From contig OX467090.1 in NCBI GenBank assembly GCA_950106755.1, positions 15,127,489 to 15,191,488 of the forward strand: a DNA stretch of 64,000 nucleotides. Direction: 5' to 3'. A program made the translations under genes and the position numbers. The notes under the pieces were generated by a model. It saw only the letters and a program-made list of their open reading frames with translations. It searched no databases and had not been told where the DNA came from. Below, piece after piece: positions 16,236-56,038 of the stretch (its first letter is position 1; every line of letters starts with the position of its first letter). Origin of the DNA: Climacium dendroides (lineage: Eukaryota; Streptophyta; Bryopsida; Hypnales; Climaciaceae).

Positions 16236-16262
16236 AAGGCCTTATTCGTTAAATTGAGACAA
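16236..16262 (+). repeat. Left 27-bp terminal inverted repeat
   Basis: Begins with the palindrome AAGGCCTT and ends TTGAGACAA. It is the exact reverse complement of 56012-56038. CTAT lies immediately outside. Confidence 0.85.
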
Positions 16263-16680
16263 AATGGTCATTTTGAGACATTGAAAACCGGAGTGCAAAG
16301 CTCAATTGATTGAATAGTTGTAAATGAACCCTCAACTCACAACAACAATAAAGATCTCTAAGGCTACATTCTAGAAAATAATTAGCAAAGAATAAATAGA
16401 TGCATAGAAAAGTGAATTGAATTACATTCAGTAAGTTCAAATTACTTGAGAGTTTAATTACACAAAGAACTTTCAAGCCTCTATCATGATGTCACTGGAC
16501 ATAAATGGCTATTGAGCACTAGGTACTCTGAATTTGTGTAGAAACGGAGAGGCTAACTGTACACGTAAACCTCAACTTTTCTAAGTAATTTTTTTTCTAT
16601 ATTCTATTTAGCATGCTATTTATAGGGTTTAGGCAATTTGACGCCCATGGCGTCCAAAATTGAATCGGCTTGACCAAACG

Positions 16681-17583
16681 TCATTTGTGGCCTGTACAAT
16701 TGTTCTTGGCCGCCTCCAACGCCTTCAGCCTTGCCATGCCTCTATAGATATCTTCACGTCGTGAGGACTGGTACGATGCACTTGGATATTGCGCGCCACT
16801 GCTGAGGTCCATACCTAGAGAGGTACTGTCCTTGCGCTTTGCTTGACGCTTGCGTGGAGGTAATTCGGAGGAAGACAGGGACCTCGATCCTCGAGGTGTC
16901 GGCCGTGGCATATCGACATTGTTTATGTACGGACGTGTATTTTCAATTGATTTAGAGCTCGTCGACCGTTGCTGTTCTCTCACAATCGTCCGCCAAAACA
17001 GAATGTGCGAGGGAAGTAACGTTCGTCGTCCAACACTACGTGGGGATGGGGGCCCACTATCCTCGAGTCGAGGCAAATGAGGTGCACTGTGAGCCCCCAT
17101 GTGTGCCCCCCTTGCTTGATTTAGCAAGCCAACTACCTCCTCAACGACCTCCGTTTCTGTAGGTGGAACTACAAAATCTGTCGGCACATCATCCTTGGGG
17201 CGAGGATGATTTGTACCGTCGCTGACAGGGAGAACAAGCTTCCAATTCGTGACGACATCGGCCCGCGGCGGGGGCAAGAAGGGGCATCCTCGACTCGAGG
17301 ACGCTCGCTTGAGCGGAGACGAGGAATAAACAGGGGTTTTGACGGGTCCTCGACTCGAGGGACTGTCCACCACGCCGTCTTCAACATCGGCCTTCGAGAA
17401 GTCAATGGCCGCGGATGCCGCGTCCTTCGCCGTACGTATCATGTAGAGCTCCAAAAACATGGACGGTTTGGTACTATCTCCGACAGAGCCTAACACCTCG
17501 GAGAGCGACTTCTCCGACCTGGAAAGGAGGCTCCTCGCCACCCGATGATGTTTACCTGTTTCAGTTCCCTTTGGAGAACCAAC
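16681..17583 (-). CDS. Disordered basic/serine-rich exon, possibly the C-terminal exon of the HAD-like gene
   Basis: An open frame of about 300 codons begins after a good acceptor (TTCCTGCAG, exon start 17583) and ends with TGA at 16681. The protein is low-complexity, rich in S, P, R and E, with KRQAKRKD and PPRKRQ stretches that could serve as nuclear signals. I recognise no domain. Three copies of the element's palindrome lie inside the frame (17058, 17285, 17346) and are read as PRLED or as SSSRG/PSSRG, depending on phase. It lies downstream of and on the same strand as the HAD-like exon, so it may be the tail of the same gene, but I could not find a convincing donor joining them. It could also be a separate decayed gene. 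Confidence 0.45.
   Translation of the reverse strand, partial: VGSPKGTETGKHHRVARSLLSRSEKSLSEVLGSVGDSTKPSMFLELYMIRTAKDAASAAIDFSKADVEDGVVDSPSSRGPVKTPVYSSSPLKRASSSRGCPFLPPPRADVVTNWKLVLPVSDGTNHPRPKDDVPTDFVVPPTETEVVEEVVGLLNQARGAHMGAHSAPHLPRLEDSGPPSPRSVGRRTLLPSHILFWRTIVREQQRSTSSKSIENTRPYINNVDMPRPTPRGSRSLSSSELPPRKRQAKRKDSTSLGMDLSSGAQYPSASYQSSRREDIYRGMARLKALEAAKNNCTGHK
17058..17362. repeat. Palindrome cluster 1 (three copies inside an exon)
   Basis: Copies at 17058-17074, 17285-17303 and 17346-17362 of the core TCCTCGA(G/C)TCGAGGA. A related half motif, CCTCGATCCTCGAGG, lies at 16882-16896. All are within the minus-strand reading frame and keep it open. Confidence 0.9.
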
Positions 17584-17848
17584 CTGCAGGAAGCCCAGAT
17601 TACACAAGTTCTGCCCACATTATACCGTTGATGAAATGGTTAGAAGCAAAGGAAATGCATATTCACTTGGACAGACAATTGGAACGCTCGATACAACAGC
17701 GGAACATCTGTGCCAAAATCTTCGCTGTCAAAATTATATACAATTGAATAAATGTACAATATTACAAAAATACAAAACGTGAGTTCCTATCCAATCCAAA
17801 CCTACGAGGCCGCCCGAAGGAACCTTAAACAAACAACTATAGGGATGA

Positions 17849-19673
17849 CTAGGGATCGCGTCTCTCCGGGCCTATCACTAGCTGGAGGCCAGGAAGCTCA
17901 AAACGATATCCCAGATTCCTGGCAGACATCCTCATCCCCTCCACGAGGAACTGCACTTGGTAGTCGTTCTTTGTAAGGGGTTCCAAGCCAATCCTGTTCG
18001 CCCCTACAAACTCACACAGACGCCCCGGATCGCGCACCGACTCTAAGCGCGCAAGCCAAGGAAGGAGTTCTGACATGAGGAAGTTGTCTATCAAGTGCAC
18101 ACGAGTCCAGGTATTGAAGAACACAGCATTCCACAACTCATTGCAGACGCTCTTTTCGGGAGAGTCATCAATGAGTAGGGTGTTGTTCATGTTGAAAGTC
18201 GTGCGCACGCCCTTGTGGTTGAACATGCACTCAGATAGGACTTTCAAGAATACCGACTTAGAATTACGCGTGAGAAACTTTCCCTTCGAGGTCTCTATCC
18301 TCCTGCATTTCTCTTGACCTAAGACGTCATACAGGGCTTTTATTCCCCTAAACAAATGCTCGACGACCAACTCTGCAATGGGCTGCACCATGGAGGACCA
18401 TATAACAATCATGTCCGTGATTTGTGACACCTCGTGCAGGAACTCTTGGACGTTCTGTCGCGCGAACACGGTCTTCGACCCGACGATAGTTGGGTTCAAG
18501 TGGCACAACACATTGTCTTCCATTCGATACGGCTTGAAACTATTAGCAACTGACCTCGGCAAGCACTGACAGAGAATGCCGTTCAGATCGAAGACAATGT
18601 TGAGCCACTTGACCGGGGGTGAGGGGCTCTACGATATCCGTCATGTTCTCTCCGCCCCTGTGCAATTCTACCTGATGAAAGCAGAACAACAAGGAAATGG
18701 AGTTACCTGTTGGAATGCAAAATCAGGTGAGCTAGACAACGGGACGGAGCACAGAATTCCACTAATGGATTGCATGTTCCAGTCAGGAAGCGATTTCAGT
18801 GCCCTTGAATGGTGCAAGCTTTTAAGAATTATAGGCTGAGTAAACAAAACATCGATAAAGATTGAAATTAGAAGCCTGTGAGAACAGGAATTTTATTTAC
18901 ATTTTCTTTACAAAGATTACATGTTACACTTCGCGTGAAACTAAATGAAGCACAGATTCACGCGAACACTCTATGCTACACTATTCTACACGCAGGCAGG
19001 CCTAGAGGTCTGCATCAATGCCTAGCAATCATAAATGTGATTTCCTGCCAACGAAACTTGATTCAGTACAGGGAATCCACACCAAAAGAGCAGCCTCCTT
19101 CGCAAGCCAAGCAAGACACGAATCATTACACATTGTAGACACTCAGATAAACGCATATGGATCAGCCAAGTGTACCTCCGATGCATCGCCTTGTAACCCC
19201 TCGCCCTCACCAACTACGGTCGCCTCTGCCCAAACTTCCCCCTCCTCGAGAATGTTCTCGAGGATGTCTTCTTCGGCCTCCCCGTAATCAAGAAGCTCCT
19301 CCTCCAGATCATCGACACGAAGATCTTCTCCACCCGCTTCTTGGGAAGTTGTGCATAAAGCAGCCTCTGCTTCGTCGACCACTTTCGGAGGCCTTGAAGG
19401 TCCTGCCGACGAAGACGCAGGAACTCCAGAAATATCCTCGACTCGAGGATGTGTTGCAGGAGTGACGCCCGCAGAATCGGGGATGAGCGCAGACTGCCCG
19501 TCGTGACGTATGAGACTAGGCGCGGGCAGCTGAGACGCTAGAGTCGCTACAACGTAGTCGTCTCCGGAGGGACGAACCTCGTCAGTCTTATCCTCGACTC
19601 GAGGATGAGAAGGATTGGCAGCATCGCGGGACGCGGATGCTATAGGCAAGGAGGAGTGGACTGGAGGTGGCAT
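17849..19673 (-). CDS. FCP1/SCP-like HAD-superfamily phosphatase-like gene with acidic disordered N-terminus
   Basis: Exon 1 (19673-19176, ATG start) encodes an acidic disordered region with HPRVEDK and HPRVEDI, both from palindrome copies. A phase-0 donor (GAG|GTACAC) can join an exon starting at 18671 (VELHRGGENMTDIVEP). The next stretch reads WLNIVFDLNGILC, then VIVWSS-like MIVIWSSMVQPI, a possible motif III lysine, and TLLIDDSPEK near 18160: HAD motifs I, II and IV in FCP1/CTD-phosphatase order. Motif I is DLN rather than DxD, so the usual general acid is missing and activity is doubtful. VELHR and WLNI are in different frames; a one-base shift, probably in the G5 run at 18615-18619, or an unseen small intron must lie between them. 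A further phase-0 exon (about 18820-18717) is possible. FCP1-type proteins dephosphorylate the RNA polymerase II tail; that role here is only a family-level guess. Confidence 0.6.
19242..19608. repeat. Palindrome cluster 2 (three copies near the HAD-like gene's start)
   Basis: Copies at 19432-19452 and 19588-19608 match ATCCTCGACTCGAGGAT and encode HPRVED on the minus strand. A variant at 19242-19263 is CCTCGAGAA + TG + TTCTCGAGG, also a perfect inverted repeat but with a different centre. Confidence 0.88.
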
Positions 19674-20386
19674 TGGAATTTGGCTTGGGAGAGTCTGCGG
19701 TATTCACACTAATATTTCAAAGGTTTAACATTTGAAAATGGATTGATTTCTAAGTGGTGTTCATCACACAAATCCATGCACATGTCTTCATTTATTCATG
19801 AATGATCAACAAATTTAATGTATCTTGATTAGATACCCGCACCTCAATGCTCACCTCCTTAGAAAACACTTTCAATTGATGTCCAAAGATGCTAATCAAA
19901 GCAACCCATTTCAATGATCAACAATTTTGCCATCAAATGTACCACTTATATCATACCTCATAATTGAAGACTTGAAAACAAGTTTAACCTTCTAAACCTC
20001 TTATAATAAGAACACACTAAATGCTACTGATGCTAATTTCAAAATTATACTCAAAATAACTCCTTCCTAACATAATACTACCAACCACTTATATAATTTC
20101 AGTTATTATTCTTTACCATCATCATGATATGGATTGATTATAGAACTTGGAGTTAGTTCCCTCTATCTTGACTAGCGTGATATGTCCATGTTAGAAATTC
20201 AAGTATCAATGCCATAATATTGAAATAAGAAATGTAGTTTCATTATTTTAGTTCAAAGTACATTAATCTCTTTGGTTTAAGCATTGAAAGTTTGATACAA
20301 TGCTAACTATGAAATATTTTCATTCATTGGTTTTTAAAATATTAAAATATCCTTTTTTTAGAAACATGATGGTCTTTAATGACCAA
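19674..20386. other. Upstream region of the HAD-like gene
   Basis: AT-rich, with no reading frame that I can support. It is the likely promoter side of the minus-strand gene starting at 19673. It is cut by the copia A insertion (target duplication GTTTT at 20387-20391). Confidence 0.4.
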
Positions 20387-20391
20387 GTTTT

Positions 20392-20694
20392 TGTTGAAGA
20401 AAGTGAATAGATTGGCATAGAATGTTTGTGGGAGCTCTTAGTATGGGCTGACCTTAGTTGTGTGTTGTTTGTAGCCAAAGCAATGGGCTATTAGAGAGGG
20501 GCAGCCCTCCTAGTGGTGCCTATAGAGAGGGGCAGCCCTCCTAGAGGACCTTTGTCCCATATGGTTAGTCATGGCACTTAGTAGAAGAGTGGTATAAGAG
20601 GGCAGCCCCTAGCATGGGCTTGACACCCCTTTCTCACACATGTTTGTGTTCCCCTTCATTGGAATATATTGGCTTGGTTTTCTTTCTCTCAATA
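20392..20694 (+). repeat. Copia A 5' LTR
   Basis: Contains a TATA-like box and two direct copies of AGAGGGGCAGCCCTCCTAG at about 20495 and 20526. A near-complementary GAGGGCAGCCCCT at 20598-20610 can pair with them apart from one A:A mismatch. Confidence 0.96.
20593..20600 (+). promoter_or_regulatory. Probable LTR TATA box
   Basis: TATAAGAG in the 5' LTR. The same TATAAGAG occurs at this place in the other copies of the family and in the diverged solo LTR at 57.9 kb, so it is conserved. Transcription would then start about 30 bases downstream. Confidence 0.55.
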
Positions 20695-20708
20695 GGTTAT
20701 GGGCCCAC
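20695..20708 (+). other. Primer-binding site complementary to the anticodon arm of initiator tRNA-Met
   Basis: GGTTATGGGCCCAC follows the LTR directly. Its complement, GTGGGCCCATAACC, is the anticodon stem-loop of plant initiator tRNA-Met (anticodon CAT). The tRNA 3'-end type of site (TGGTATCAGAGC) is absent. Drosophila copia and yeast Ty5 are known to prime with a tRNA half in this way. Confidence 0.75.
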
Positions 20709-20990
20709 TCATGTGAGTTGCTATTGGAGGTGAGATCTCATTAGAAGGTGTGTTGGTGGAGCACTATTGGAGCTTGGAGCAAGTGGAGTTTGGGGTCGTT
20801 TGGAGCATTTCTCTTCACCATTTTGGTGAGGTATTTTCTTGTTTTTGAGTCCATTTGTGCTACTTGAGGGTTGATTGTACTTGTTGAGCACTCAAGAGGG
20901 TTAATTTGGTGTTTCATAGCCTTATTGGGAGGTAGGGTTTGGCCCTTTCTCCAAAGGGGGTGATTTGTGCATTTGGTACATCAATGGAGT

Positions 20991-21440
20991 GATTTGGAGC
21001 ATTTGAGTGTGCATTGGAGAGGTTTGGACTCATTAGGGTCTGATTCGAGTGTATTGGAGCATTTGAGTGCACGTAGGAGAGTTTTGGACTCATTAGGGTC
21101 TGATTTGAGAATATTGGAGCATTTGAGTGCACCTTGGAGAGTTTTTGACTTATTAGGCTCTGAATTGAATAATTTGGAGCCCTGGAGTGTTCATTGGAGT
21201 GACTTGGACCACTTGGGGCCTGAATTGAGTGTTTTGGAGCACTAGAGTGTGCATTGGTGAGATTTGGAGCACTTGAGTGTGCATTGGAGAGACTTGGACC
21301 ACTTGGGGTCTGATTTGAGTGTTTTGGAGCACTTAAGTGTGCATTGGAGAGATTTCGGCCATTTGGGGTCTAAAGTGAGAATATTGGGCCATTAAGGATC
21401 TGATTGGAGTGATTTGAGTCACTTAGGCTTCCATTGGAGT
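20991..21440 (+). repeat. 60-bp minisatellite in the copia A leader
   Basis: A 60-bp unit of the type TTGGAGCA(T/C)TTGAGTG..GCATTGGAGAG..TTGGA runs about seven times between the LTR and the gag ATG, with a 30-bp sub-period and one partial unit. A single frame (20967-21245) stays open through it and reads as repeats of LEHLS..W..LDSLGS. Confidence 0.9.
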
Positions 21441-21454
21441 GGGAGACCTAAACC

Positions 21455-24400
21455 ATGGCCACTAGTGATGGAGATGGCGTGAGGGTCATCGACAAGTTCA
21501 ATGGAGACAACTTTGGACTATGGAAGTTCAAAATGGAGATGATCTTGGCCGAAAAGGACTTGTGGGAGATTGTAGAAGGCACGGAGGAGGTACCTACATC
21601 TGATGCGGATGTGAAAGTCAAGAAGTCCTATGAGAGAAGGGTCAAGAAGGCCTTCTCCATGATTGCTTGCAATCTTGTGGATAGGCAACTTGCACATGTG
21701 CGAGCATGCAAGGGACCCGCGGAAGCATGGAAGGTGCTTTGCAACATCCATGAGACCAAGAGCTTGTCCAACATGCTCTTCATTCGACGCAAATTCTTCA
21801 CGTGCAAGATGCAAGAGAACGAGGACATGTTGGACCACATCAACAAGGTGAAGGCGTTGGCAGACCAACTTGCTTGTTTGGAGGTTCCTGTCACGGATGG
21901 TGACATTGTTATGACTTTGCTTGATAGCTTGCCACCTTCTTATGAGTATCTCATCATGGCGTTGGAGACAAGACCTATGGAGGAGCTCACTCTTGACTTC
22001 ATCACGGCAAGGTTGATGCATGAGGTGTCCAAGAGGAAGGAGAATGAGCCCCAAGAAGGAGGGGCAGCACTCTACTCGCGGTATGGCCAAGGGGGGAGCT
22101 CACAACCACGCAAGGAGACACGCACATGCTACAATTGTGGTAAGCCCGGCCACCTTGCACGGTTTTGTAGGTTGCCCAAGAAGGAGAGTGTAAACAAGGC
22201 AAGTGTGAAGGAAGTGGAGGAGGACTTTGCATTTGCGGCCAATGAAGGATTTGACAACACCGACATGTTCACATGGATTGTTGACTCGGGCGCAACACAA
22301 CACATGACTTCACATAGGCAAGCATTTCTCACTTATGCTCCCATAAGCAATCGCAAGGTGTACTTGGGGGACAACAACATGGTGGATGCAATTGGCATGG
22401 GGTGTATCGTGGTGGAGGTAGAGGTGAAGGGTCAAGTGAGGACCATTCGCATTCAAGATGCGTTGCATGTGCCCAAGTTGCATACCAACTTGCTCTCGGT
22501 GAGCAAGTTGGTGTCACAAGATTTGAAGGTGCAATTCAACAACAAGGGGTGCGTTTTGGGTGCACCCAATGGAGAGATGATTGTGACAGCATCAAAAGAG
22601 GGCAATTTGTATCATTTGAGGTTCAAGAGCGTGAATGGCACAAGCAAGGCATGTTTGGCGCAAGGTGCAGTCCACCAACACTCATTGGAGCTATGGCACA
22701 AGAGATTGGGCCACCTCAATGAGAAGAGTGTGAAGAGCCTTCAAAGCATGGTGGGAGGCATGCAAGTGGAGAAGGGCTCTTGCGATTTGAAGTGTGAAGC
22801 TTGCATTGAAGGCAAGCAAGCAAGGCAACCATTTCCAAGCGATGGAGGGACAAGAGCAACCAAGGTGTTGGAGATTGTGCACTCCGATGTGTGTGGCCCC
22901 ATGAAGACCACCTCTATGGGTGGTGCAAGGTATTTTTTGACCTTCATTGATGATTTTTCAAGGAAGATATGGGTGTTCATGCTCAAGTGCAAGAGTGAGG
23001 TGTTTGAGAAGTTCAAAGCATGGAAGGCACTTGTGGAAAATGAGTCGGGGCATAAGGTGAAGGTGTTGAGGTCGGATAATGGTGGGGAATACATGTCCAA
23101 GGCCTTGGAGGCTTTTATGAGAGAGCATGGTATTCAACACCAAACTTCAGCCCCTTACACTCCGCAACAAAATGGTGTGGCGGAGCGTGCTAATCGCACA
23201 CTAATGGAGATGGCTCGATCCATGGTCCATGCCCAAGGCCTCACGTATGATCTTTGGGCGGAGGCAGTATCAAATGCGGCATACACACGCAATAGGTGCC
23301 CTACAAATGCAATAGCTTCGATGACACCACAAGAAGCATGGAGTGGAAAGAGGCCCAACATTGGGCACATGCGCATCTTTGGATGCGTTGCATATGCCTT
23401 GGATTTGAGTCCCAAACGCTCCAAGCTTGATGTCAAGGGCATCAAGTGTTTGCTTATGGGATATTGTGAGGGCTCCAAGGCGTATAGACTCATGTGTTTG
23501 GAGACCAAGAAGATCATCAAGAGTCGCGATGTCTCATTTGTAGAAGACAAGCAAGGGGACACCAATGCTTTGGAGATATGTCCAAGTGGGAGCAAAGAGG
23601 AACCAAAGATTGAGGTGGACAAATCTCCAAGCATGCCCAAGGATGATGAGGACCATGATGAGACACCACCGACACCTAAGGAGAAGAGTTGTCCATCTCC
23701 GAGCTCTCCACCAATTGAAGACGAGGAGGAAGATGCCTCCAAGGAGCCAAGATATCCTACGAGGGAGAGGAGGCCGCTTGGAGAATGGTGGAAGAACCAC
23801 ATCTTCCCTCAAGAGCAAGTGGAGCATGCCAATGTGGCGTGTGTAGAAGATCCACGCAACATGGGTGAAGCCATGAAGAGCTTGGATGCAAGCAAGTGGG
23901 AGCAAGCTATGAAAGAGGAGTATACTTCACTTATGGCCAAAGGTACATGGGAACTTTCTCCTCTTCCTCGTGATCGTACAAGTGTGGGATGCAAGTGGGT
24001 GTTTTGCACCAAGAGAGATGCATCCGGCAACATTGTGCGTTATAAGGCAAGATTGGTAGCCAAGGGGTATTCACAAGTTGAAGGGGTGGACTTTAATGAG
24101 ATTTTTGCTCCCGTGGCCAAGTTTTGCACCATTCGATGCATGGCGAGTATTGGGGCTACCATGGATTTGGAAATGCACCAAATGGATGTCATCATAGCGT
24201 TTCTCAATCCTGGGCTTGAAGAAGTGATCTACATGGACCAGCCTAAGGGCTTTGTCCAAGAAGGCCGTGAGTACCTCAAGTGCAAGCTCAAGAAGGCCAT
24301 CTATGGGTTGAGGCAATCGGGAAGAGCATGGTACATGGATGTGGATGCATTGTTCGCAAGGGAGGGCTACAAAAGGAGTCATGCAGACCACTCTCTCTAC

Positions 24401-25444
24401 ATCAAGCAAACAAGTACGTATTTGGTGATTGTGATTGTGTATGTAGATGACTTGATCATCATGACCAACACAATGAGCAAGATGGTGGAAGTGAAGGCCA
24501 TGTTGAAGAGTCAATATGACATGAGCGACCTTGGTGAGTTACACTATTGTCTTGGAGTGGAGTTCATAAGGAACCGGGCGGCCCGCACCATCACCATGAG
24601 CCAAGGCAAGTACATTGAGGGCGTGTTGAAGCGATTCAATATGGAGGGATGCAAATCCGTTGGTACACCTCTTGATGTAAAGGAGAAGATGCCCAAGCTC
24701 ACGGATGAAGAGTATGAAGGTGTAAAGGCTGAAATGCAAGATGTGCCTTACAAAGCTGCGGTGGGGAGCTTGATGTATGCTATGGTGGCCACAAGACCTG
24801 ACCTTGCATTTGCCATGAGTGTGGTGAGTCAACACATGGCCAAAAGCGGCCCAAGGCATTGGACAACAGTGAAGAGGGTCATGCGATACCTCCAAGGAAC
24901 TTTGGATGCCAAGTTGGTACTTGGCGGCCAGAGCCTAGCATTAGTGGGTTTTTGTGATGCAGATTGGGCCGGAGATGCAACGGATAGGAGGTCGACCACA
25001 GGCTATGTGTTTATACTTGGAGGTGGTGCCATTTCATGGAATTCAAAGAAACAACCCACCATTGCATTGTCTACCACCGAGGCGGAGTACATGGCCATTA
25101 GCCAATGCACAAGAGAGGCCATATGGCTAAGGCAACTCATGAGTGATGTGGGATTGGAGCAAGGGAAGAGCACATGCATCATGTGTGACAATCAAGGCGC
25201 CATTGCCTTGGTGAAGAATCCCATCCATCACTCTCGGAGCAAACACATTGACATACAACACCATTTCATTCGTGAGAAGGTTGAAGAAGATGTGATTGAG
25301 ATGAAGTACATTTCCACGGAGCGCATGGTGGCCGATGTGCTTACAAAGGCACTTGGCAAGCCCCGACATGAAGTTCTTCGCAAGGAGATGGGTTTGACAT
25401 TGTTTGGCAACAAACAAAGTGGGAGTGTTGAAGAAAGTGAATAG
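21455..25444 (+). CDS. Copia A Gag-Pol polyprotein (intact, 1329 aa)
   Basis: A single frame encodes all retrotransposon proteins. Gag (UBN2-type, WKFKMEMILAEKDLWEIV) covers about residues 1-200. A zinc knuckle CYNCGKPGHLARFC starts at residue 225 and the aspartic protease motif DSGATQHM at 277. A GAG-pre-integrase HKRLGHL and the integrase core follow (HSDVCGP, DNGGEY, NGVAERANRT for the D, D, E residues). Reverse transcriptase has MDVIIAFLNP and YVDD, with its Asp near 998. RNase H (DADWAGD, near 1168) ends with ALSTTEAEYMA. The ATG lies in CCATGGCC after the leader repeats. The stop (25442-25444) is 19 bases inside the 3' LTR, so the last codons are LTR-encoded. No frameshift or stop is present, so the copy may still be active. 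Compared with segment 3 of the composite it reads FNEIFAPV for FNETFAPV. Confidence 0.97.
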   Translation: MATSDGDGVRVIDKFNGDNFGLWKFKMEMILAEKDLWEIVEGTEEVPTSDADVKVKKSYERRVKKAFSMIACNLVDRQLAHVRACKGPAEAWKVLCNIHETKSLSNMLFIRRKFFTCKMQENEDMLDHINKVKALADQLACLEVPVTDGDIVMTLLDSLPPSYEYLIMALETRPMEELTLDFITARLMHEVSKRKENEPQEGGAALYSRYGQGGSSQPRKETRTCYNCGKPGHLARFCRLPKKESVNKASVKEVEEDFAFAANEGFDNTDMFTWIVDSGATQHMTSHRQAFLTYAPISNRKVYLGDNNMVDAIGMGCIVVEVEVKGQVRTIRIQDALHVPKLHTNLLSVSKLVSQDLKVQFNNKGCVLGAPNGEMIVTASKEGNLYHLRFKSVNGTSKACLAQGAVHQHSLELWHKRLGHLNEKSVKSLQSMVGGMQVEKGSCDLKCEACIEGKQARQPFPSDGGTRATKVLEIVHSDVCGPMKTTSMGGARYFLTFIDDFSRKIWVFMLKCKSEVFEKFKAWKALVENESGHKVKVLRSDNGGEYMSKALEAFMREHGIQHQTSAPYTPQQNGVAERANRTLMEMARSMVHAQGLTYDLWAEAVSNAAYTRNRCPTNAIASMTPQEAWSGKRPNIGHMRIFGCVAYALDLSPKRSKLDVKGIKCLLMGYCEGSKAYRLMCLETKKIIKSRDVSFVEDKQGDTNALEICPSGSKEEPKIEVDKSPSMPKDDEDHDETPPTPKEKSCPSPSSPPIEDEEEDASKEPRYPTRERRPLGEWWKNHIFPQEQVEHANVACVEDPRNMGEAMKSLDASKWEQAMKEEYTSLMAKGTWELSPLPRDRTSVGCKWVFCTKRDASGNIVRYKARLVAKGYSQVEGVDFNEIFAPVAKFCTIRCMASIGATMDLEMHQMDVIIAFLNPGLEEVIYMDQPKGFVQEGREYLKCKLKKAIYGLRQSGRAWYMDVDALFAREGYKRSHADHSLYIKQTSTYLVIVIVYVDDLIIMTNTMSKMVEVKAMLKSQYDMSDLGELHYCLGVEFIRNRAARTITMSQGKYIEGVLKRFNMEGCKSVGTPLDVKEKMPKLTDEEYEGVKAEMQDVPYKAAVGSLMYAMVATRPDLAFAMSVVSQHMAKSGPRHWTTVKRVMRYLQGTLDAKLVLGGQSLALVGFCDADWAGDATDRRSTTGYVFILGGGAISWNSKKQPTIALSTTEAEYMAISQCTREAIWLRQLMSDVGLEQGKSTCIMCDNQGAIALVKNPIHHSRSKHIDIQHHFIREKVEEDVIEMKYISTERMVADVLTKALGKPRHEVLRKEMGLTLFGNKQSGSVEESE

Positions 25445-25728
25445 ATTGGCATAGAATGTTTGTGGGAGCTCTTAGTATGGGCTGACCTTAGTTGTGTGTT
25501 GTTTGTAGCCAAAGCAATGGGCTATTAGAGAGGGGCAGCCCTCCTAGTGGTGCCTATAGAGAGGGGCAGCCCTCCTAGAGGACCTTTGTCCCATATGGTT
25601 AGTCATGGCACTTAGTAGAAGAGTGGTATAAGAGGGCAGCCCCTAGCATGGGCTTGACACCCCTTTCTCACACATGTTTGTGTTCCCCTTCATTGGAATA
25701 TATTGGCTTGGTTTTCTTTCTCTCAATA
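25426..25728 (+). repeat. Copia A 3' LTR
   Basis: Reads the same as the 5' LTR base for base; followed by the GTTTT duplication. Confidence 0.96.
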
Positions 25729-25733
25729 GTTTT

Positions 25734-45571: not shown

Positions 45572-45588
45572 GGTTATGGCCCACGCAC
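45572..45588 (+). other. Copia C primer-binding site (half-tRNA type)
   Basis: GGTTATGGCCCACGCAC follows the LTR directly. It resembles the complement of the initiator tRNA-Met anticodon arm but is one G short in the GGGCCC block. Confidence 0.6.
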
Positions 45589-45839
45589 TTGGAGTTGCAT
45601 TTGAAGGAGAAATTCAAATCATTTGGAGGAGATCTTGGAGCTTGGAGGAGCAATCAGCCTTGTGTGTATTTTTCACCTACAAACCATATGGTGTGAGTAA
45701 ATATTTTGAAAAACTTGGAGTGCATTTAAAAAAAAAAAAAAAGTTTTTTTTGTTTTTCTCATTGGCTGGTTTGTGAGGTTTTGAGTACATTTTGGTGGAG
45801 ACATTGCTTATGGTAGTAATCAGACCTAGTAAGGGCTAG

Positions 45840-46660: not shown

Positions 46661-46680
46661 CAAGTGGGAGGTGCTCCATC

Positions 46681-49600
46681 ATGGCATCAAGTGGAGGAGA
46701 AGGTGTGCGCATCATTGACAAGTTCAATGGGGAGAACTTTGGCATGTGGAAGTTCAAGATGGAGATGATTCTTGCGGAGAAGGACTTGTGGGAGGTGGTG
46801 GATGGGAGTGAGGAGCCTCCAAGTGAAGATGCTGATCCAAAGACCAAGAAGGCATTTGAGAGGAAGGAGAAGAAGGCCTTTGCTCTCATTGCCATCAACC
46901 TTGTGGACCGGCAAATTGCTCACATTCGCCATTGCAAGGGACCAGCCCAAGTATGGACCACCCTTTGCAACATCCATGAGACCAAGAGCCTCTCCAACAT
47001 CCTTTTTCTCCGGCGCAAGTTCTTCACTAGCAAGATGCAAGAGGAGGATGACTTGTTGGATCATGTCAACAAGATCAAGGCCCTTGCGGATGAGTTGGCT
47101 TGTTTGGAGGCACCCGTGACGGATGGAGATGTGGTGATGACCTTGTTGGAGAGCTTGCCACCGTCTTATGAGTTCCTCATCACCGCATTGGAGACAAGGC
47201 CTATGAAGGAGCTGACCATGGAGTTTGTGACGGCCCGCTTGATGCATGAGGTGACCAAGCGCAAGGAGAATGAGTCCCAAGGAGATGGATCAGCCCTTGT
47301 CTCTAGACATGGCAAAGGGGTCAACACCAAGGTCTTCAAGGAGACAAGGACATGCTTCAAGTGTGGCAAATCAGGCCACATTGCTAAGCATTGCAAGGGC
47401 AGCCAAGCCAAAGGCAAGGAGAGTGCACACCAAGCCTCCAAAGAGGAGGAAGAGGAGGAATTTGCTTTTGCCACCCATGGAGGAGGGGAGAAGGCCAACA
47501 TGTTTACTTGGATAGTGGACTCGGGGGCCACTCAACACATGACCAGCCATAGAGATGCCTTCCACACCTATCAGCCCATTTCGGGGAAGAAGATTTATTT
47601 GGGAGACAATGGTGTGGTGGAGGCCCTTGGCATGGGGCTGATCCTTGTGGAGGTGCAAGTGAAGGGGGAGACCAAGAGGATCAGAATTCAAGAGGCACTC
47701 CATGTGCCCAAGTTGCATGCCAACTTGCTTTTTGTGAGCAAATTGTGTTTGGGAGTTTTGAAAGTGCATTTGAACAATGTGGGGTGTGTTGTGAGGGCAC
47801 CAAGTGGAGTTTTGATTGCATCAGCCCCTCGTGAGGGCAACTTGTACCTCCTCCACTTCACCAAGGTGAATGGCACCTCCCGAGCATGTGTTGGCCAAGG
47901 ATCAGCTCATGGAGACGTTGTGGAGCTTTGGCATAGGAGGCTTGGGCACTTGAATGTGAAGAGCATGAAGAGCCTCCAACACATTGTGAAGGGGCTGAAC
48001 CTCTCTTCTTGCAAGCATGATTGGAGTTCTAGGGTGTGCAAGGGGTGCATTGAGGGCAAACAAGCAAGGCAGCCCTTCCCCAAGGATGGGGCAACAAGGG
48101 CCAGCAAGCCATTGGAGCTTGTGCATTCCGATGTGTGCGGACCAATGAAGACCACCACCATAGGAGGAGCAAGGTATTTTTTGACATTTATTGATGATTT
48201 CTCCCGCAAGGTGTGGGTGTATATGCTGAAGTGCAAGAGTGAGGTGTTTGGGCGTTTTGAGACTTGGAAGGCCCTTGTGGAGGCCCAATCTAATTGCAAG
48301 GTGAAGGTGCTGCGGTCGGATAATGGTGGGGAGTATGTGTCCAAGGCCTTTGAGGAGTACTTGAAGGCCCATGGCATTGAGCACCATACATCAGCACCTT
48401 ACACTCCTCAACAAAACGGCGTAGCGGAGCGTGCCAACCGCACCATTGTGGAGATGGCAAGGTCCATGATTCATGCCCAAGGGCTGAAGTTTGAGCTTTG
48501 GGGTGAGGCGGTGTCTACAGCGGTTTATACAAGGAACCGGTGCCCCACCCAAGCCTTGACAAGCATGACACCCCAAGAAGCTTGGAGTGGGATTAGGCCT
48601 CATGTGTCTCACATGCGCATCTTTGGGTGCATTGCCTATGCCTTGGTTCCAAGTGCCAAGAGGACCAAATTGGATGCTAAGGGCATCAAGTGTCTTTTCC
48701 TTGGTTATTGTGAGGGAACCAAGGCTTATAGGCTGATGTGTGTGGAGAGCAAGGCCATCATCAAGAGTCGAGATGTGACCTTCTTGGAAGATGGAGGTGC
48801 TGATCCTAAGCTCTTGGAGATGAGCCCAAGTGGGAGCAATGGAGGACCAGCCCAAAAGGTGGGCACAACTCCAAGAGTGCACATAGAAGATGAAGGAGAT
48901 GAAGATGAAGAGCAAGGAGAAGAAGAGGAAGACTTGGTGGAGCCCAAGAAGAAGGTGGCCACACCCCAAGTGAAGAGATCAGCAATTCCTTCTCCAAGCA
49001 CTTCACCAAGGGAGCAAGAGCATGATCAGCCCTTGGCAGAGCAAGATCAGCCCTTGGAAGAACAAGATCAGACCATGGAGGAGCCCCGTTATCCCACAAG
49101 GACCCGCAAGCCCCTTGGAGATTGGTGGTTGAATCACATTCTTCCCCCACAACATGAAGATCAAGCCAATGTGGCTTTCCTTGGAGATCCATCTACACTT
49201 GGAGAGGTGTTGCATTGTGAAGATGCAAGCAAGTGGGAGTTGGCCATGCAAGAGGAGTATAATGCCCTCATTGCCAAGGAGACATGGGAACTTGCTGCCC
49301 TCCCTTCCAAGAGATCAAGTGTGGGTTGTAAGTGGGTTTTCTCCACTAAAAGGGATGCTTTGGGCCACATTGTGAGGTACAAGGCAAGGTTGGTTGCTAG
49401 GGGTTTTTTCTCAAGTGGAAGGGGTAGACTTCAATGAGACCTTTGCCCCCGTTGCTAAGTTTAGCACCATTAGGTGCATTGTGAGTATTGGGGCAGCCAT
49501 GGACTTGGAGATGCACCAAATGGATGTGAAGACGGCTTTTCTCAACCCCAAGCTTGAGGAGGTCATCTACATGGATCAGCCCCAAGGCTTTGTGCAAGAA

Positions 49601-50833
49601 GGCCAAGGGCATCTCAAGTGCAAGTTGAAGAAGGCACTTCCCGGGTTGAAGCAATCGGGGAGAGCTTGGTATAGGGATATTGATGCCATGTTTGCAAGGA
49701 AGGGCTTCCAAAGAGGCTATGCTGATCACTCTTTGTACACCATGCAAAGTTGTGAGCATTTGGTGATTGTGATCCTCTATGTGGACGATCTGATCCTCCT
49801 TGCAAGTAGCATGACCAAGATGCTTGAAGTGAAGGATATGCTCAAGAAGGAGTATGAGATGACGGATCTTGGAGAGTTGAAGTTTTGCCTTGGAGTGGAG
49901 TTCAAGAGGGATAGGGCTGCCCGCACCATCACCATGAGCCAACGCAAGTACCTTGAAGAAATTCTCAAGCGCTTCAACATGGAGGAGTGCAAAGCCATAG
50001 GTACACCACTTGACACTCATGGGAAGTTGCCCAAGCTCACGGATGCTGAATTTGAAGACATGAGGGCTGAAATGCAAGGTGTGCCTTACAAGGCAGCGGT
50101 GGGTTGCCTCATGTATGCCATGGTAGCCACAAGGCCTGATTTGGCCTTTCCGGTGAGTGTGGTGAGTCAACACACGTCCAAGTATGGCCCCAAGCATTGG
50201 GCTGCGGTCAAGAGGGTGATGAGGTACCTTCAAGGCACACTTGGGCTGAAGTTGCAACTTGGGGGTGCCAATGTGAGTTTGCATGGCTTTTGTGATGCGG
50301 ATTGGGCGGGCGATGAGGTGGATAGGAGATCCACCACCGGTTACGTGTTTATGCTTGGATTGGGTGTCATTACTTGGAATTCCAAGAGGCAGCCCACCAT
50401 AACTCTTTCTACAACGGAGGCGGAGTACATGGCCATGAGCCAATGCACCAAGGAGGCCATTTGGCTAAGGCAACTCTTGGCTGATGTTGGCCTTGTCCAA
50501 GAGGGCAGCACACCAATTTGGTGTGACAATCAAGGGGCCATTGCTTTGGCCAAGAATCCCACCCACCACTCTCGGACGAAGCACATTGATGTGCAACACC
50601 ATTTCATTCGTGAACGAGTGGAGGCTGAGGTGATTGAGCTCAAGTATGTGCCTACCCAAGCTATGGTTGCTGATGTGCTGACCAAGGCCCTTGGGAAGCC
50701 ACAACACCAAAACTTGATTGGGAAGATGGGCCTTGGAGCCTTTGACCACTCTCAAAGTGGGAGTGTTGAAGAACATGTACATATTAGTGTAGACTATGTA
50801 CATTCAGCCCTAGGAGTAGCATTAGACTCTTAG
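46681..50833 (+). pseudogene. Copia C Gag-Pol, broken by one frameshift
   Basis: The first part (46681-49437) starts MASSGGEGVRIIDKF and holds Gag, the zinc knuckle CFKCGKSGHIAKHC, protease DSGATQHM, the GAG-pre-integrase RRLGHL and integrase (HSDVCGP, DNGGEY, NGVAERANRT). The second part (49394-50833) has the reverse transcriptase MDVKTAFLNP, YVDD and RNase H DADWAGD. The two overlap in different frames. The break lies at the T6 run at 49404-49409, where copy A's aligned sequence has no such run; one extra T explains it. A sequencing error in the homopolymer cannot be excluded. The ORF ends 70 bases inside the 3' LTR. Confidence 0.93.
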
Positions 50834-51017
50834 TTAGACTTAGAGTCTCTTGGGTATTGCTTGTAGTCAAAGGCAGCCCATTGAGGTTAGTTATCCCATG
50901 ATGTATGTGGATAACTATGAAAGGCTTCTACCTTATGTTCAACCCACTCATGGGGTTTGGTATCCTCCTACCATCTAAGTAAAGCCTTTCTTCATTCATT
51001 ACTTTGTAATCTCAATA
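50764..51017 (+). repeat. Copia C 3' LTR
   Basis: 254 bp; one base differs from the 5' LTR. Confidence 0.95.
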
Positions 51018-51266: not shown

Positions 51267-52069
51267 TTTATCCTCGAGTCGATGATAATGCATTTGTTTG
51301 TTTGTTGTTGGGTACGCTTATCTTCGAGTCGACGATGATTCATTTCTTGAAGGCATTTGATTGTATCATTATCTTCGAGTCGACGATAACTGATATTTTC
51401 ATTTGTGACATTTCTGGGTATAGTTATCTTTGAGTCGATGATAAGTGATAGTCACCTTTGTGGATATTCTGGGTACGCATATGTTTGATTGAACGTTAAC
51501 TGATTCATACCTTTGTGGTAATTATGTGTACACTTATCTTCGACTCGACGATAATTAATTGATTGTTACCTTTATTTCAATGTCGGGTACACTTATCTTC
51601 GAGTCGATGATCGTTGATTACTAGCCTAACAGAATATTGTGTATATATTATAAATTTACTTTGAATGAATTATCTCTATGTCTAGGATAAAATCGTTAGA
51701 TCACTATAGCTTATATTCATTTCGTATTGAATATTTCTTTTGGATTGATCTTTAGACGGATGGGTCTTTACAAGATAAGAGGACCTGAAGTCTTTAGATT
51801 TTTTTATCAATCAGAGAGTGTGATGTATTGATTTATCTTCGAGTCGAGGATAATTTTATTAAAATTTTTGAAGTGAATCTCCGTTGGATGAGTTCATTCT
51901 GATTTTCTGATACACCTGTAGGTGTTATTTGGGGTTACTGCATGAAACTCAATAATGTGAGGAGCTTATAAGTAGCGTACAAAGTAAACCTCATTCTGAA
52001 GCTATTCTTCGCTGTTTGTGGTTGGATTAGAATTGTTTTGATTTTTTATCGTCGATATGAAGATTATTA
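51267..52069. repeat. Palindrome cluster 7 upstream of the DUF7869-type gene
   Basis: Copies at 51267-51289, 51316-51340, 51367-51390, 51422-51446, 51531-51556, 51591-51614, 51831-51855 and a diverged one at 52043-52069. Most are of the sub-type TATCTTCGAGTCGACGATA and are spaced about 50-110 bp apart. Confidence 0.9.
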
Positions 52070-52143
52070 ATGGAAATTCTTGTTTGAATCAGTAATAGTT
52101 GTGTCATTTCATCCACGTAGGATTTGATTTTATGAGCGGTGAA

Positions 52144-52556
52144 TTTTGAATTCTTCGTACATATGGATAGCGTTTAGCTTTTTTTGTATCTGATATCAGT
52201 TGCTTTTGTCTGATGGTTTGATATATGTTCAATTATCCTCGAGTCGAGGATAATTGTGGATAATAGTTTTCTGTCATGGTGACTTTTGAATTCTTCGTAC
52301 ATATGGATAGCGTTTAGTTTCGTTTGTAATTGATATCAGTTGCATTTGTCTGATGGTTTGATATATATTTAATTATCCTCAAGTCGAGGATAGTTGTGGA
52401 TAATAGTTTTCTGACATGGTGGCTTTTGAATTCTTCGTACATATGGATAGTGTTTAGTTTGGTTTGTAATTGATATCTGTTGCTTTTGTCTAATGGTTTG
52501 ATATATGTTTAATTATCCTCGAGTCGAGGATAATTGTGGGTAATAGTTTTCTGTCA
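52144..52556. repeat. Three tandem 140-bp repeats, each carrying one palindrome
   Basis: Units start TTTTGAATTCTTCGTACATA at 52144, 52284 and 52424 and include GTTTGATATAT plus AATTATCCTCGAGTCGAGGA. Palindromes lie at 52231-52255, 52371-52394 (one arm changed, CTCAAG) and 52511-52535. The array ends about 90 bases before the start codon of the next gene. Confidence 0.93.
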
Positions 52557-52646: not shown

Positions 52647-55316
52647 ATGGATATTCATGGGCCTGATGATTTCGTCAATCCGGTTCCCACTTTACCCGAT
52701 GGTGTTGCAGTGTGTGATGGGGTCCCACGGGCTTCTTGGATCACAAAGGGTGTTACTTTGAGGAACGACGCAGGAGATGATGTTGCAAGAGGAGTATGTC
52801 ATAGCGTGGATGCAGAGGACGTCATCGATGCGGATGGTAAACCTCTTGGTGATGATCGGGTGGCCGTTCAAATTGCAGAGTCCTTATGCGAGGAGGAGGT
52901 GCTGTCTGTTTGGATGTGGTCTATGCGTTCTTGGCACATAAAACTCGTGTTCTTGAATGGTGTGAGTTTATATGACCATGACTAGACACACATATACAAG
53001 GCAACAATGAATGCCATTGGTCGTCGTGTTCGTGTTGGTGTTCATTCCTATGAAAGTTGCCGGGAGAGAAGAGAAGCAGACCATCCACCCAAGAAGGACT
53101 CCCTTCTTACTATAGAAGAAATTACAGAAGTGTCTACAAAGACATGCTGCCCAAGCAATTGCTTGCAACCGTTTCCTCGCGGAGATATTCAAGCTCTACG
53201 ATCTGAACTTCATGTGCATGGTGGGGTGTATGTTCGCAAATGGTGTCTCATTGAGGTGCACAGGCAAATCCACAAAGATTCTGCTGGGAAGGAGTGGATA
53301 ACCTTGAGGGGTTGGGAAGTGTGTCCTATGGCTTGGTGGACAATTTATGGTATTTCAAGAGCTACATTCTATAGGTACAAACAGATGGCTAAGAATGGGC
53401 AAGAGGCTGAGGGGCACAGGAACTTAGGGACTAAAAAACCTCGCGCGCAAACTCTACAAGCTACTGCCACACTTCGCATGTTGATTGAGAATGATGCTGA
53501 CAAAATGCCACACAAAACAAGGACATTGGAAACTGGGGAGAAAGTGTCGGCAATGGTGTTGCCATCATCTTTTCGTTGGAGTGACCAATTACCAACAATG
53601 AATGAAGCAAATGCGGCATTTAATTTGCCACCAATTTCTTCTAGTGGCTTGAGCAATATTCGACGTGCTTTTTTCCCAGAGTTTGTAGCGAAAGCCCATG
53701 GAGATAGTTTTTCAAGGTGTAGCCTCTGTGATAGGTACAAGCAATTGAGGAGTGCTTGCACTCCGCTTTCTACTTCAGCGAACAAGTGGGCGTACCTTTT
53801 GGGTACTCATCGATCGGGGCAACAGGCACATAGACTACTTTATTATGGGAATCGGCATATGTCAGAGACGTACCCCGAGAAGATGTTGTGCGTTATTCAT
53901 GACAAAATGGATCACTTGAAGACAGCTTCTCTACACTACTCTCATAAAACCAAAGTGACAGACTTTTTCATGAAGATGTCTTTTGCTGTTACAGGAATGA
54001 TTGCTCATGGTCATGGCGACTTTCGGTATGCACACTATGGGCTCGATATTTTTCCAATGGATTCAAATCATACCATTGGCTCCATTGCAAAATTGTTGCG
54101 TGACTTGGAAGGACCGCCTACGAATTCATCGCGCCAACTATTTTCTATAGAGGAGGGTCAATCTATCTTGACAAAGGCAGTAGAAGGATCAAACATTTGC
54201 CTTGATTCCCTCTTAACTCCTCCAGAAGAGCCTATTCCACCTAAACCTTTGCCACCAATACTTACTTTGCAGTTGGACAATGCATCAGGGGATAACAAAA
54301 ACAAATGGGTGTTTGCCTTTTGCTCTCTTCTTGTTTTTAAAGTCATTTTTCGAGAGATTTACATCAACTTCCTCATTGTTGGGCATACTCATAAAGACAT
54401 TGATGCTCTTTTTGGGAGATGGAGTACAATGTTGAAGACAAATAGCTACTCGACTATTCCGAGGCTGATGAAATCCTTTATGGATTGTGAGAAGTATCCA
54501 GTGATTCCTCATTTAATAGAGGAAGTTCCTGATTTCAAGAGGTTTGTCCACGAGTACTTGGGCACAGCTGGGGACTTCTTAGAAGGTCATTCGGCTTGCC
54601 AACAATTCAAATTCTTTATGGATTCCAATGGTTGGCCCCTGATGGAGTACAAATATTTGTGTACGGATCCAAATTGGTTGCCAGAACATGGTCGAGGGAT
54701 TCGTTTGTGGTTTGAGACTAAAGATGGGCGTCCAAAAGTGCCAAATGGTAGTCCACCGCCTTTGGCTCCGGAGGAAATGAAAGCGTCAGAGGAGATCAAA
54801 AAGGGTTTGGATGGTTTTATTTCATATTGGACAGAAATGGCCAATGAAGACCATTCAGGAGAGTTTCAGAGGAAGAATGATTCGATAAGAAATTATTGGA
54901 AAGGTGTGAGAGCCGCTCTAGATGCACCCCTTTTGGTGCGTAATACATTGCAGTATGGATTTTGGCTTGCTTCTAGAATCAACAACGAAGTGGAAGACCG
55001 AATGGAAGACGATGGCACACTACGTGAAGAATATGCAGAAGATGCGCCTTTTGTTGGACGTAGACGTGATCGTCCGCGGCCATCGTTCCGTGTTGGTCGT
55101 GATGTATACGCAGGTTATTTTGTTGTTGTGCGTCCTGCTGATGGTGACCCGAAGCCATTTTGGCTAGCTAGGGCGATTACAAATCAAAATCCGAATCCAA
55201 GGTATGTTCACTTGATCCAAATTCAATATTGGACGCCTGTTTCAAGTCGTCACATCAACATGGACACATACGCTGGATGGGACACGAAGGCAGGAAATGT
55301 GTGGTGTGAAGATTGA
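52647..55316 (+). CDS. DUF7869-family protein, transposase candidate of the giant element
   Basis: ATG at 52647 opens a frame of 112 codons; a TAG at 52983-52985 interrupts it, and the same frame continues to 55316 (769 codons from ATG 53007). Because both parts are in one frame and the intervening text still reads as protein, the TAG is probably a nonsense change (CAG to TAG), though a separate start at 53007 is possible. Counting from 53007 the features are CCPSNC near 47-52, GISRATFYRY near 115, CSLCDRYK near 236, HDKMDH at 298, HGHGDFRYAHYG near 337, LQLDNASGDNKN with Asp 424, and VGHTHKDIDALFGRWS from 458. This is the DUF7869 pattern. The spaced Asp/Asn/His motifs suggest an RNase H-like (DDE) fold, which is inference. 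The gene is intronless after 52647 and is next to the right TIR. Confidence 0.78.
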
Positions 55317-56011
55317 GCTATCCCTCTAAGTTGGTCAAATACTGACTGTATTATGATAGCTTGGAAGCCACGCGGAAAGAAGGGGGCTATTGATGTACCT
55401 CAAGTTCTTACAAAAGTTTCTATCCCTAAACCACAAATCAACATCATTAAATCATCCGTAGAAGCCTTTGTGGTTTAAGACGTAGTGTGCCATCGTCTTC
55501 CATTACGGATCATCCTTGGCGTTTTAAGAAGAATAGTTACTTTGATTTTATTGTCTATAATTTATAATTTATTAGTATTTTATTATTAGAAGGATAGAAG
55601 CTGAATGCACATTTTCATTTTAGATATTTGCAAGTATCAATTATGTTGTTTTGAATATGATATTGATTGTGGTTATATGCCAATATCAATTTCTATTAAT
55701 AGTATGAAATTGTTATGTTTCTTATAGATGTGATTTGAACCTTCAATGCGCGCATTTGCAATGCTTTTCAAATATTTGAGATGTAGAAGTAGTTCTTGCG
55801 AATTTTTTGTAATTCAAGTTTGCAAATCACTTTTCTAGTACCCCTAAACCCTAAACCCCCAAAAAATTTCATTTTGTAGTGCCTTGTTGCATTCAATCAA
55901 CATATTTATGTTCACAAGATTCACCACAAATTATATAAAATATAATTTGACATGAGAAATGAACAATTATTTTAGTGTAATTAAAGATTGGATTTAAAAT
56001 GAGACTCTTAA
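55317..56011. other. 3' flank of the DUF7869-type gene to the right TIR
   Basis: No gene. Contains a short telomere-like CCCCTAAACCCTAAACCCCC at 55841-55860. Confidence 0.5.
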
Positions 56012-56038
56012 TTGTCTCAATTTAACGAATAAGGCCTT
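56012..56038 (-). repeat. Right 27-bp terminal inverted repeat
   Basis: Exact reverse complement of 16236-16262, about 700 bp beyond the stop codon of the DUF7869-type gene. CTAT follows directly outside. Confidence 0.85.

What the first reader, a model, noticed from the sequence alone, without database searches (positions are those of the whole stretch)
16236..56038. A giant TIR transposon with its own cargo genes
A perfect 27-bp inverted repeat, about 40 kb apart and flanked by CTAT on both outer sides, encloses all palindrome copies, a DUF7869-type gene and two minus-strand genes. Similarity ends abruptly at base 27. A chance match of this length is not credible. With three later copia insertions removed, the core is about 19.4 kb. 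I know of no named element that combines a DUF7869 protein, an HAD phosphatase-like gene and a ParB-like gene.
Basis: partly seen in the sequence, partly recalled or inferred. Interest (0 to 1): 0.9.

Follow-up and report, generated by a model that had tools for sequence, protein, structure and literature searches.

The report
Giant moss transposon with dispersed palindromes
A 17-kb jumping gene, whose ends occur hundreds of times in a moss-like genome, carries a probable transposase plus companion genes and is dotted with one short DNA palindrome that may let it recognise its own DNA.

Summary
Confirmed and extended. The perfect 27-bp inverted repeats with CTAT outside are the ends of a DNA transposon. 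The host genome (unnamed, moss-like, 412.6 Mb) holds 829 sites for the end (control 0). Of 20 paired elements checked, 16 (15 independent) have exactly 4-bp target-site duplications. DUF7869 is probably a DDD transposase: its predicted model has the RNase-H strand/helix order with conserved acids at the expected places (no fold search ran). ParB identity found no support in profile searches. New: the palindrome TATCCTCGASTCGAGGATA occurs 38 times in the element and nowhere else in the window, clustered upstream of both divergent genes and in gene B introns; it is inferred in intron tails of 15 of 38 relatives (0.23 expected). Layout is conserved: 32 of 32 linked DUF7869/gene B pairs are head to head; 66 of 66 linked NIF-type genes lie downstream. 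Best reading: a Sola-like giant transposon with a self-recognition (anti-silencing or regulatory) module. Binding is inferred, not shown; many genomic palindromes remain unassigned.

The parts
16232..16235 (.). left 4-bp target-site duplication CTAT
   Evidence: 4-bp TSD in 16 of 20 paired elements
16236..16262 (+). left 27-bp terminal inverted repeat
16681..17619 (-). last minus-strand open stretch (low-complexity, basic C-terminus)
   Evidence: open in this and several other copies
17849..18628 (-). NIF/FCP-type HAD domain exon; motif DLNG in place of DxDx(T/V) (motif recalled)
   Evidence: Pfam PF03031 E 5e-12, 46.1 bits vs cut-off 21.8; downstream of gene B in 66 of 66 linked loci
19143..19699 (-). 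3' part of gene B exon 3
   Evidence: joined to 27433 in other copies
19700..27432 (.). later insertion inside exon 3: a non-copia shell (about 2.4 kb) with a copia element (20392-25729) nested in it; not part of the core
   Evidence: absent from the joint in six of seven other copies
27433..28439 (-). 5' part of gene B exon 3
28440..28678 (-). gene B intron 2 (splice model by eye) with 3 palindromes
   Evidence: sites
28679..29996 (-). gene B exon 2 (open frame changes within it in this copy)
29997..30155 (-). gene B intron 1 (splice model by eye) with 2 palindromes
   Evidence: palindrome inferred in the same intron of relatives
30156..31634 (-). gene B exon 1 (the 'ParB-like' FMIINGQHS motif; two in-frame stops in this copy)
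31607..33584 (.). palindrome cluster at and upstream of the gene B start: 15 sites, the first (31607) in exon 1
   Evidence: counts by region
34372..43720 (.). later copia insertions, not part of the core
43721..45317 (.). core, between the two divergent genes, no palindromes
45318..51017 (.). later copia insertion (LTRs 99.6% identical over 258 bp), not part of the core
51269..52532 (.). palindrome cluster upstream of the DUF7869 gene: 10 sites; the last three lie one in each of three 140-bp tandem units (52138-52557)
52647..55478 (+). DUF7869 gene, probable DDD transposase; two premature in-frame stops in this copy
   Evidence: PF25273 E 1.5e-42; relatives; frame; model of relative P0001
17058..19607 (.). 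8 palindromes inside minus-strand open stretches (17058, 17190, 17285, 17345, 18470, 19307, 19433, 19589)
56012..56038 (-). right 27-bp terminal inverted repeat
56039..56042 (.). right 4-bp target-site duplication CTAT

Best explanation
A giant (core about 17 kb) DNA transposon family of a moss-like plant. Shown: 27-bp ends, 4-bp target duplications, hundreds of ends, fixed gene layout, element-associated palindromes. Inferred: the DUF7869 protein is an RNase-H-fold DDD transposase that cuts at the 27-bp ends and inserts with a 4-bp stagger. The divergently transcribed gene B encodes a protein that binds the dispersed 19-bp palindrome as a dimer. Sites sit upstream of both genes and in gene B introns, so binding most likely marks the element as self and keeps its promoters active (anti-silencing) or autoregulates it. 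The NIF/FCP-type domain, possibly a relative of RNA polymerase II CTD phosphatases, is a conserved third component acting in the same step. The copies read are decayed, so movement in trans by intact relatives is likely. Rough odds: TIR transposon 0.97; DUF7869 is the transposase 0.9; Sola2-type 0.45 (lowered from 0.5 on checking, because one review lists the Physcomitrella Sola as Sola1); gene B or its complex reads the palindrome 0.6; anti-silencing rather than plain regulation 0.35.
For: Ends: 829 sites vs control 0. TSD: 16 of 20 pairs exactly 4 bp, 15 of 19 independent. Copies with both ends, 17.2, 17.4, 18.0, 21.2 and 25.2 kb, align in the same order, with some insertions and deletions. 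DUF7869 model (P0001, pLDDT 78.5, pTM 0.60): strands 413-418, 443-454, 460-466, helix 473-487, strand 539-544, helix 553-565, strand 571-576, helix 586-599; D419/D422, D545 and D585/D587, invariant or at least 90% conserved in 70 sequences, sit after strand 1, after strand 4 and at the start of the last helix, the RNase-H order (recalled). Layout: of 89 scored gene B loci, 32 have a group-B DUF7869 within 30 kb (0.74 expected), all 32 head to head; 66 of 89 have a NIF locus within 20 kb (1.2 expected), all same-strand downstream. Four contig lengths are shared between 56 DUF7869 and 25 gene B lengths typed from the hit lists of other sources. Palindrome: 38 of 38 window sites inside the element, 0 in five shuffles; 25 to 37 inside and 0 in 50,896 outside bases for five other copies; 553 exact sites genome-wide, control 0. 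Translated palindrome in 15 of 38 intron tails of relatives vs 0.23 from shuffles; exact peptide forms in 12 of 50 gene B relatives, 0 of 50 reversed, 0 of 120 DUF7869 relatives. Divergent copy L057: 46-bp units upstream of gene B, palindrome 87% vs spacer 63% identical; window array 88% vs 44-45%.
Against: No binding, demethylation or transposition data. Gene B has no recognisable DNA-binding domain by Pfam, NCBIfam or PDB profile and its structure was not predicted (job not accepted). The fold search of the DUF7869 model never ran, so the RNase-H fold rests on secondary-structure order. Of 25 palindrome clusters among the 50 listed C1 sites, 19 (26 of 50 sites) have no scored gene B or DUF7869 within 15 kb (hand count); two of the 19 lie between or near listed TIRs, the rest are unassigned, and only 89 of 1019 gene B and 150 of 1820 DUF7869 candidates were scored. 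Coding constraint is weak: dN/dS 0.37 to 0.43 for gene B exons and NIF, 0.57 for the last stretch, 0.58 for DUF7869, against 0.40 to 0.84 in non-coding controls. Of the 22 gene B rows most like the window's (48-51% to P0121) none is free of stops. The NIF motif lacks the second aspartate of active phosphatases (recalled). The relatives are not phylogenetically independent. Four of 20 pairs lack a TSD.
Confidence: 0.6

Rival explanations
1. The palindromes are internal binding sites of the DUF7869 transposase itself, like the subterminal TnpA sites of En/Spm (recalled), and gene B has another role.
For: Transposons can carry arrays of binding sites (recalled); in the sequence read, sites are confined to elements.
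Against: Sites are not subterminal: none lies in the first 0.8 kb or last 3.5 kb of the window element; they sit upstream of genes, in gene B introns and in minus-strand open stretches. The translated form occurs in gene B relatives' intron tails.
Confidence: 0.2
2. The palindromes are sites for a host factor (transcription activator or replication protein) used by the element; gene B is unrelated to them.
For: Clusters lie at presumed promoters; arrays at regular spacing. On C1, 26 of 50 listed sites are not near a scored gene of the family, which would fit sites elsewhere in the genome.
Against: None in 50,896 bases read outside five copies and in the window outside the element; 24 of 50 listed C1 sites lie within 15 kb of a scored family gene. 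Host genes were not surveyed.
Confidence: 0.15
3. Gene B and the NIF gene are captured host genes, ordinary passengers.
For: Giant transposons often carry accessory genes (PMC12477816, passages).
Against: Same order and strand in 32 of 32 and 66 of 66 linked loci; exon 2, the start of exon 3 and NIF are 45-50% identical in an element with the same perfect 27-bp ends, so they look ancestral.
Confidence: 0.05
4. Chance inverted repeat or two unrelated repeats; no transposon.
For: None found.
Confidence: 0.01

Closest known systems
Sola superfamily, Sola2 group (PMC3627910, PMC10741241, PMC9033089: passages read)
   Same: DDD transposase; 4-bp TSD (AT-rich in the Sola2 elements described); variable TIRs (11-1124 bp); some over 15 kb; Sola reported from the moss Physcomitrella; Sola2 elements can carry another gene (Fanzor1).
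   Different: No Sola2 transposase sequence was at hand, so homology to DUF7869 is untested; the Physcomitrella Sola is listed as Sola1 in PMC9033089; palindrome array, gene B and NIF are not mentioned in the passages read.
Sola1-1_Ec32 of Ectocarpus (PMC12477816, passages read)
   Same: 21.5-kb giant element with an accessory gene on the strand opposite the transposase, whose product is proposed to bind and modify its own transposon DNA.
   Different: That 1104-aa protein is called ParB-like plus DNA methyltransferase; gene B here matches no ParB or methyltransferase profile and a NIF domain is present instead. No dispersed palindrome is mentioned in the passages read.
VANDAL21 and VANC21 of Arabidopsis (PMC5735166, passages read)
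   Same: A short motif, dense and often tandem, enriched in the element, in introns of accessory genes and upstream of the transposase gene, read by an element-encoded protein.
   Different: Motif is 9 bp and non-palindromic; MULE superfamily (recalled); VANC binding is demonstrated by ChIP-seq and EMSA, here nothing is.
En/Spm (CACTA) with TnpA sites (recalled)
   Same: Two-protein system with arrays of a short motif.
   Different: TnpA sites are subterminal; TSD 3 bp; termini CACTA (all recalled).

Membership tests
cut-and-paste TIR DNA transposon | terminal inverted repeats at both ends of dispersed copies | tested here: met
   829 end sites; pairs
cut-and-paste TIR DNA transposon | fixed-length target-site duplication | tested here: met
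   4 bp in 16 of 20
cut-and-paste TIR DNA transposon | empty site with one TSD copy | not tested
   queries not answered
Sola2 | 4-bp, AT-rich TSD | tested here: met
   46 of 60 bases are A or T in 15 independent TSDs (hand count)
Sola2 | homology to Sola2 transposase | not testable with these tools
   no reference Sola2 sequence at hand; DUF7869 gives 0 papers
RNase-H-fold DDD/E transposase | strand/helix order with three acids | tested here: inconclusive
   order and acids fit; fold search did not run
ParB | match to a ParB profile | tested here: not met
NIF/FCP-SCP phosphatase | PF03031 above cut-off | tested here: met
   46.1 bits window, 55.6 bits L058, cut-off 21.8
NIF/FCP-SCP phosphatase | catalytic DxDx(T/V) (recalled) | tested here: not met
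   DLNG in the 5 copies whose translation was printed (window; c2, c6; c5, c7) and in L058
VANC-type anti-silencing system | dense motif upstream of and in introns of the element's genes | tested here: met
VANC-type anti-silencing system | motif dense only in the element family genome-wide | tested here: inconclusive
   0 outside in the sequence read, but 26 of 50 listed C1 sites unassigned
VANC-type anti-silencing system | element protein binds motif and removes methylation | not testable with these tools
   needs EMSA, ChIP and methylomes
Starship | tyrosine-recombinase captain | tested here: not met
   none in the 20 ORFs scanned (of 42 of at least 150 aa)

The most novel reading that the evidence does not exclude
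A land-plant transposon lineage with a three-part self-recognition module: a gene B protein of a new family reads a dispersed 19-bp CpG-containing palindrome as a self tag along the element, and a NIF-type relative of polymerase-CTD phosphatases uses that tag to keep host polymerase active, i.e. an anti-silencing system independent of VANC and of the algal ParB-methyltransferase type.
Probability: 0.3. Interest if true: 0.87.

Novelty: new variant of a known kind. Interest (0 to 1): 0.74.

Why it matters
DUF7869 is a Pfam domain of unknown function with no paper found under that name in the library searched; here it is tied to ends, target duplications and a fixed gene layout, which makes a transposase function directly testable. 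The palindrome gives a concrete candidate recognition site for a conserved, uncharacterised transposon protein. Mosses such as Physcomitrium can be transformed (recalled), so how giant transposons recognise themselves and perhaps escape silencing could be tested in a simple plant.

Tried and rejected
ParB identity of gene B was tried with Pfam, NCBIfam and PDB profiles and dropped. DUF7869 against the PDB by sequence gave nothing credible. A dN/dS test was first run in wrong frames for two exons, then redone in six frames with non-coding controls; it is weak. Chance, captured cargo and Starship readings were considered and rejected (above). Group A DUF7869 genes (93 of 150 scored) are not linked to gene B (1 of 89 within 30 kb, 1.2 expected). 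A right-end DNA query was not repeated because the pattern search covers both ends. Papers: PMC12477816, PMC3627910, PMC10741241, PMC9033089, PMC4455052 and PMC5735166 were seen in passages, PMC6431247 as outline, all others as search listings; Yuan and Wessler 2011 is not held. Searches for this element in print; no listed row (up to 10-25 per search) was a moss element with these parts.
Full report
What was checked. The window's 27-bp inverted repeat is perfect, flanked by CTAT on both outer sides, and similarity stops at base 27. The window lies in a 412.6-Mb genome at C39:15127489-15191488.

Ends and target duplications. The 27-mer with up to 3 mismatches occurs 412 times forward and 417 reverse, the reversed control 0 and 0 (100 places are listed). 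From 58 of those 100 places typed into a script, 18 neighbouring plus/minus pairs span 16.6 to 109 kb. I checked flanks of 20 paired elements: the window, 17 of those 18 pairs, and two whose right end has one mismatch (c2, c5). In 16 the outer flanks share exactly four bases and no more; in four they do not. Two of the 16 are one duplicated locus, leaving 15 of 19 independent sites. This fits a 4-bp target-site duplication.

True core. Seven other copies were read in part or whole. Six run from window 19699 straight to 27433; the seventh (c8) has about 215 bases between (five joints printed). So 19700-27432 is an insertion: a non-copia shell of about 2.4 kb holding a copia element. Leaving out the two other insertion blocks (34372-43720, 45318-51017), the core is 16236-19699, 27433-34371, 43721-45317 and 51018-56038, about 17.0 kb. 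The five copies with both ends in the stretch read measure 17.2, 17.4, 18.0, 21.2 and 25.2 kb.

Genes. Plus strand: the DUF7869 gene at 52647-55478 (Pfam E 1.5e-42), with two premature stops in this copy. Minus strand: gene B, exon 1 about 31634-30156, exon 2 about 29996-28679 and exon 3 from 28439 across the insertion to about 19143 (splice model by eye). Further 3' on the same strand are a NIF/FCP-type domain (17849-18628) and a last open stretch; whether they are exons of gene B or a separate gene is unresolved. In the six copies whose translations I printed (window, c2, c4, c5, c6, c7) gene B or DUF7869 shows at least one stop or broken frame.

What DUF7869 is. An AlphaFold2 model of relative P0001 on 70 sequences (pLDDT 78.5, pTM 0.60) shows strand, strand, strand, helix, strand, helix, strand, helix (short elements between are left out here). 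Conserved aspartates lie after the first strand (419/422), after the fourth (545) and at the start of the last helix (585/587) (for conservation). That is the RNase-H order of DDD/E transposases (recalled). The fold search could not be run.

Conserved layout. Of 1820 DUF7869 candidates 150 were scored: 93 match from about profile position 5-8 (group A) and 57 from about 31-55 (group B, which the window's copy resembles, its match starting at 35). Of 1019 gene B candidates 89 were scored; 10 of 89 have no stop in the match, but none of the 22 rows most like the window's. Thirty-two of 89 gene B loci have a group-B DUF7869 within 30 kb (0.74 expected), all 32 head to head; group A gives 1 of 89 (1.2 expected). 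Of 89 gene B loci 66 have a NIF locus within 20 kb (1.2 expected), all 66 downstream on the same strand; 30 of 100 listed perfect TIRs have a NIF locus within 3.5 kb (0.23 expected). The element at C1:7412427 has the same perfect 27-bp ends but different inner sequence; its exon 2, exon 3 start and NIF are 45-50% identical to the window's. In other sources, four contig lengths appear in both hit lists, a hint of linkage there too.

The palindrome. TATCCTCGASTCGAGGATA occurs 38 times (up to 5 mismatches) in the window, all inside the element and outside the copia insertions, with 0 in five shuffles. Five other copies hold 25 to 37 inside and 0 in 50,896 outside bases read. Genome-wide there are 553 exact sites, control 0. 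In the window 24 of 38 sites lie between the two divergent genes, 5 in gene B introns, 9 in minus-strand open stretches and 0 in the DUF7869 gene. In the window array upstream of DUF7869 the palindrome is 88% identical between six sites while flanks are 44-45%. In a divergent copy (L057) 5 exact and 5 near sites (up to 4 mismatches) lie upstream of an open gene B exon, six of them at 46-bp steps; palindrome 87%, spacer 63%.

The palindrome in relatives. Gene B relatives from sequence collections run past the exon-1 splice site into the intron. Of 50 relatives, 38 had a usable tail; 15 of 38 tails can encode the palindrome with at most 2 mismatches, 0.23 expected from shuffles. Many of the other tails are too short to reach the site. 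The exact peptide forms occur in 12 of 50 gene B relatives, 0 of 50 reversed and 0 of 120 DUF7869 relatives. The inference is from protein back to DNA; the DNA of these relatives was not available, their species are mostly unnamed, and they are not independent of one another.

Mechanism. I think a DDD transposase cuts at the 27-bp ends with a 4-bp stagger, and that gene B or its complex binds the palindrome to mark and activate the element. The closest demonstrated parallel is VANC21, whose motif lies in introns of accessory genes and upstream of the transposase, often in tandem arrays (PMC5735166, passages). The closest structural parallel is Sola1-1_Ec32 of Ectocarpus with an opposite-strand accessory gene proposed to bind its own transposon (PMC12477816, passages). 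Class: Sola-like by TSD and size (PMC3627910, PMC10741241, passages); the Sola2 label is uncertain because transposase homology was not testable and one review lists the Physcomitrella Sola as Sola1 (PMC9033089, passages). On checking I lowered the Sola2 odds from 0.5 to 0.45 for that reason.

Evidence that does not fit or is weak. Gene B has no known domain. The dN/dS signal is weak and absent for DUF7869, which suits movement in trans but also simple decay. On C1, 19 of 25 palindrome clusters (26 of 50 listed sites) have no scored gene B or DUF7869 within 15 kb (hand count); partial scoring, relics and fragments may explain this, untested. The NIF motif is atypical. Four of 20 pairs lack a TSD.

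Noticed in passing
genome-wide: A second DUF7869 group (93 of 150 scored loci), with some open frames over 1000 aa, is not linked to gene B; probably another transposon family.
   Followed up: partly
window 19700-20391 and 25730-27432: Shell of the non-copia insertion in exon 3; by eye its ends look CACT-like and no clear target duplication was seen.
   Followed up: partly
window 20392-25729, 34370-43721, 45315-51018: Nested copia elements with LTR pairs 100%, 100% and 99.6% identical (258-304 bp compared), so recent; the middle block appears to be one copia inside another.
   Followed up: partly
window 55001-55025 and 55480-55504: Perfect 25-bp inverted repeat between the 3' coding part of DUF7869 and just after its end, unexplained.
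   Followed up: no
window 17058-19607: Several palindromes inside minus-strand open stretches are read in one frame, giving HPR(L/V)ED peptides; the element tolerates them inside coding sequence.
   Followed up: partly
window 59637-60554, minus: Open protein kinase domain (PF00069 E 4.9e-74) outside the element, probably a host gene.
   Followed up: no
G000 C1:7412427-7430766 and C1:23325528-23342282: Two elements share both outer flanks (92-99% over 500 bp) in opposite orientation: a duplicated locus carrying the element.
   Followed up: partly
window about 44766-44793 and 55840-55860: Short AAACCCT-like (plant telomere type, recalled) tracts inside the core.
   Followed up: no
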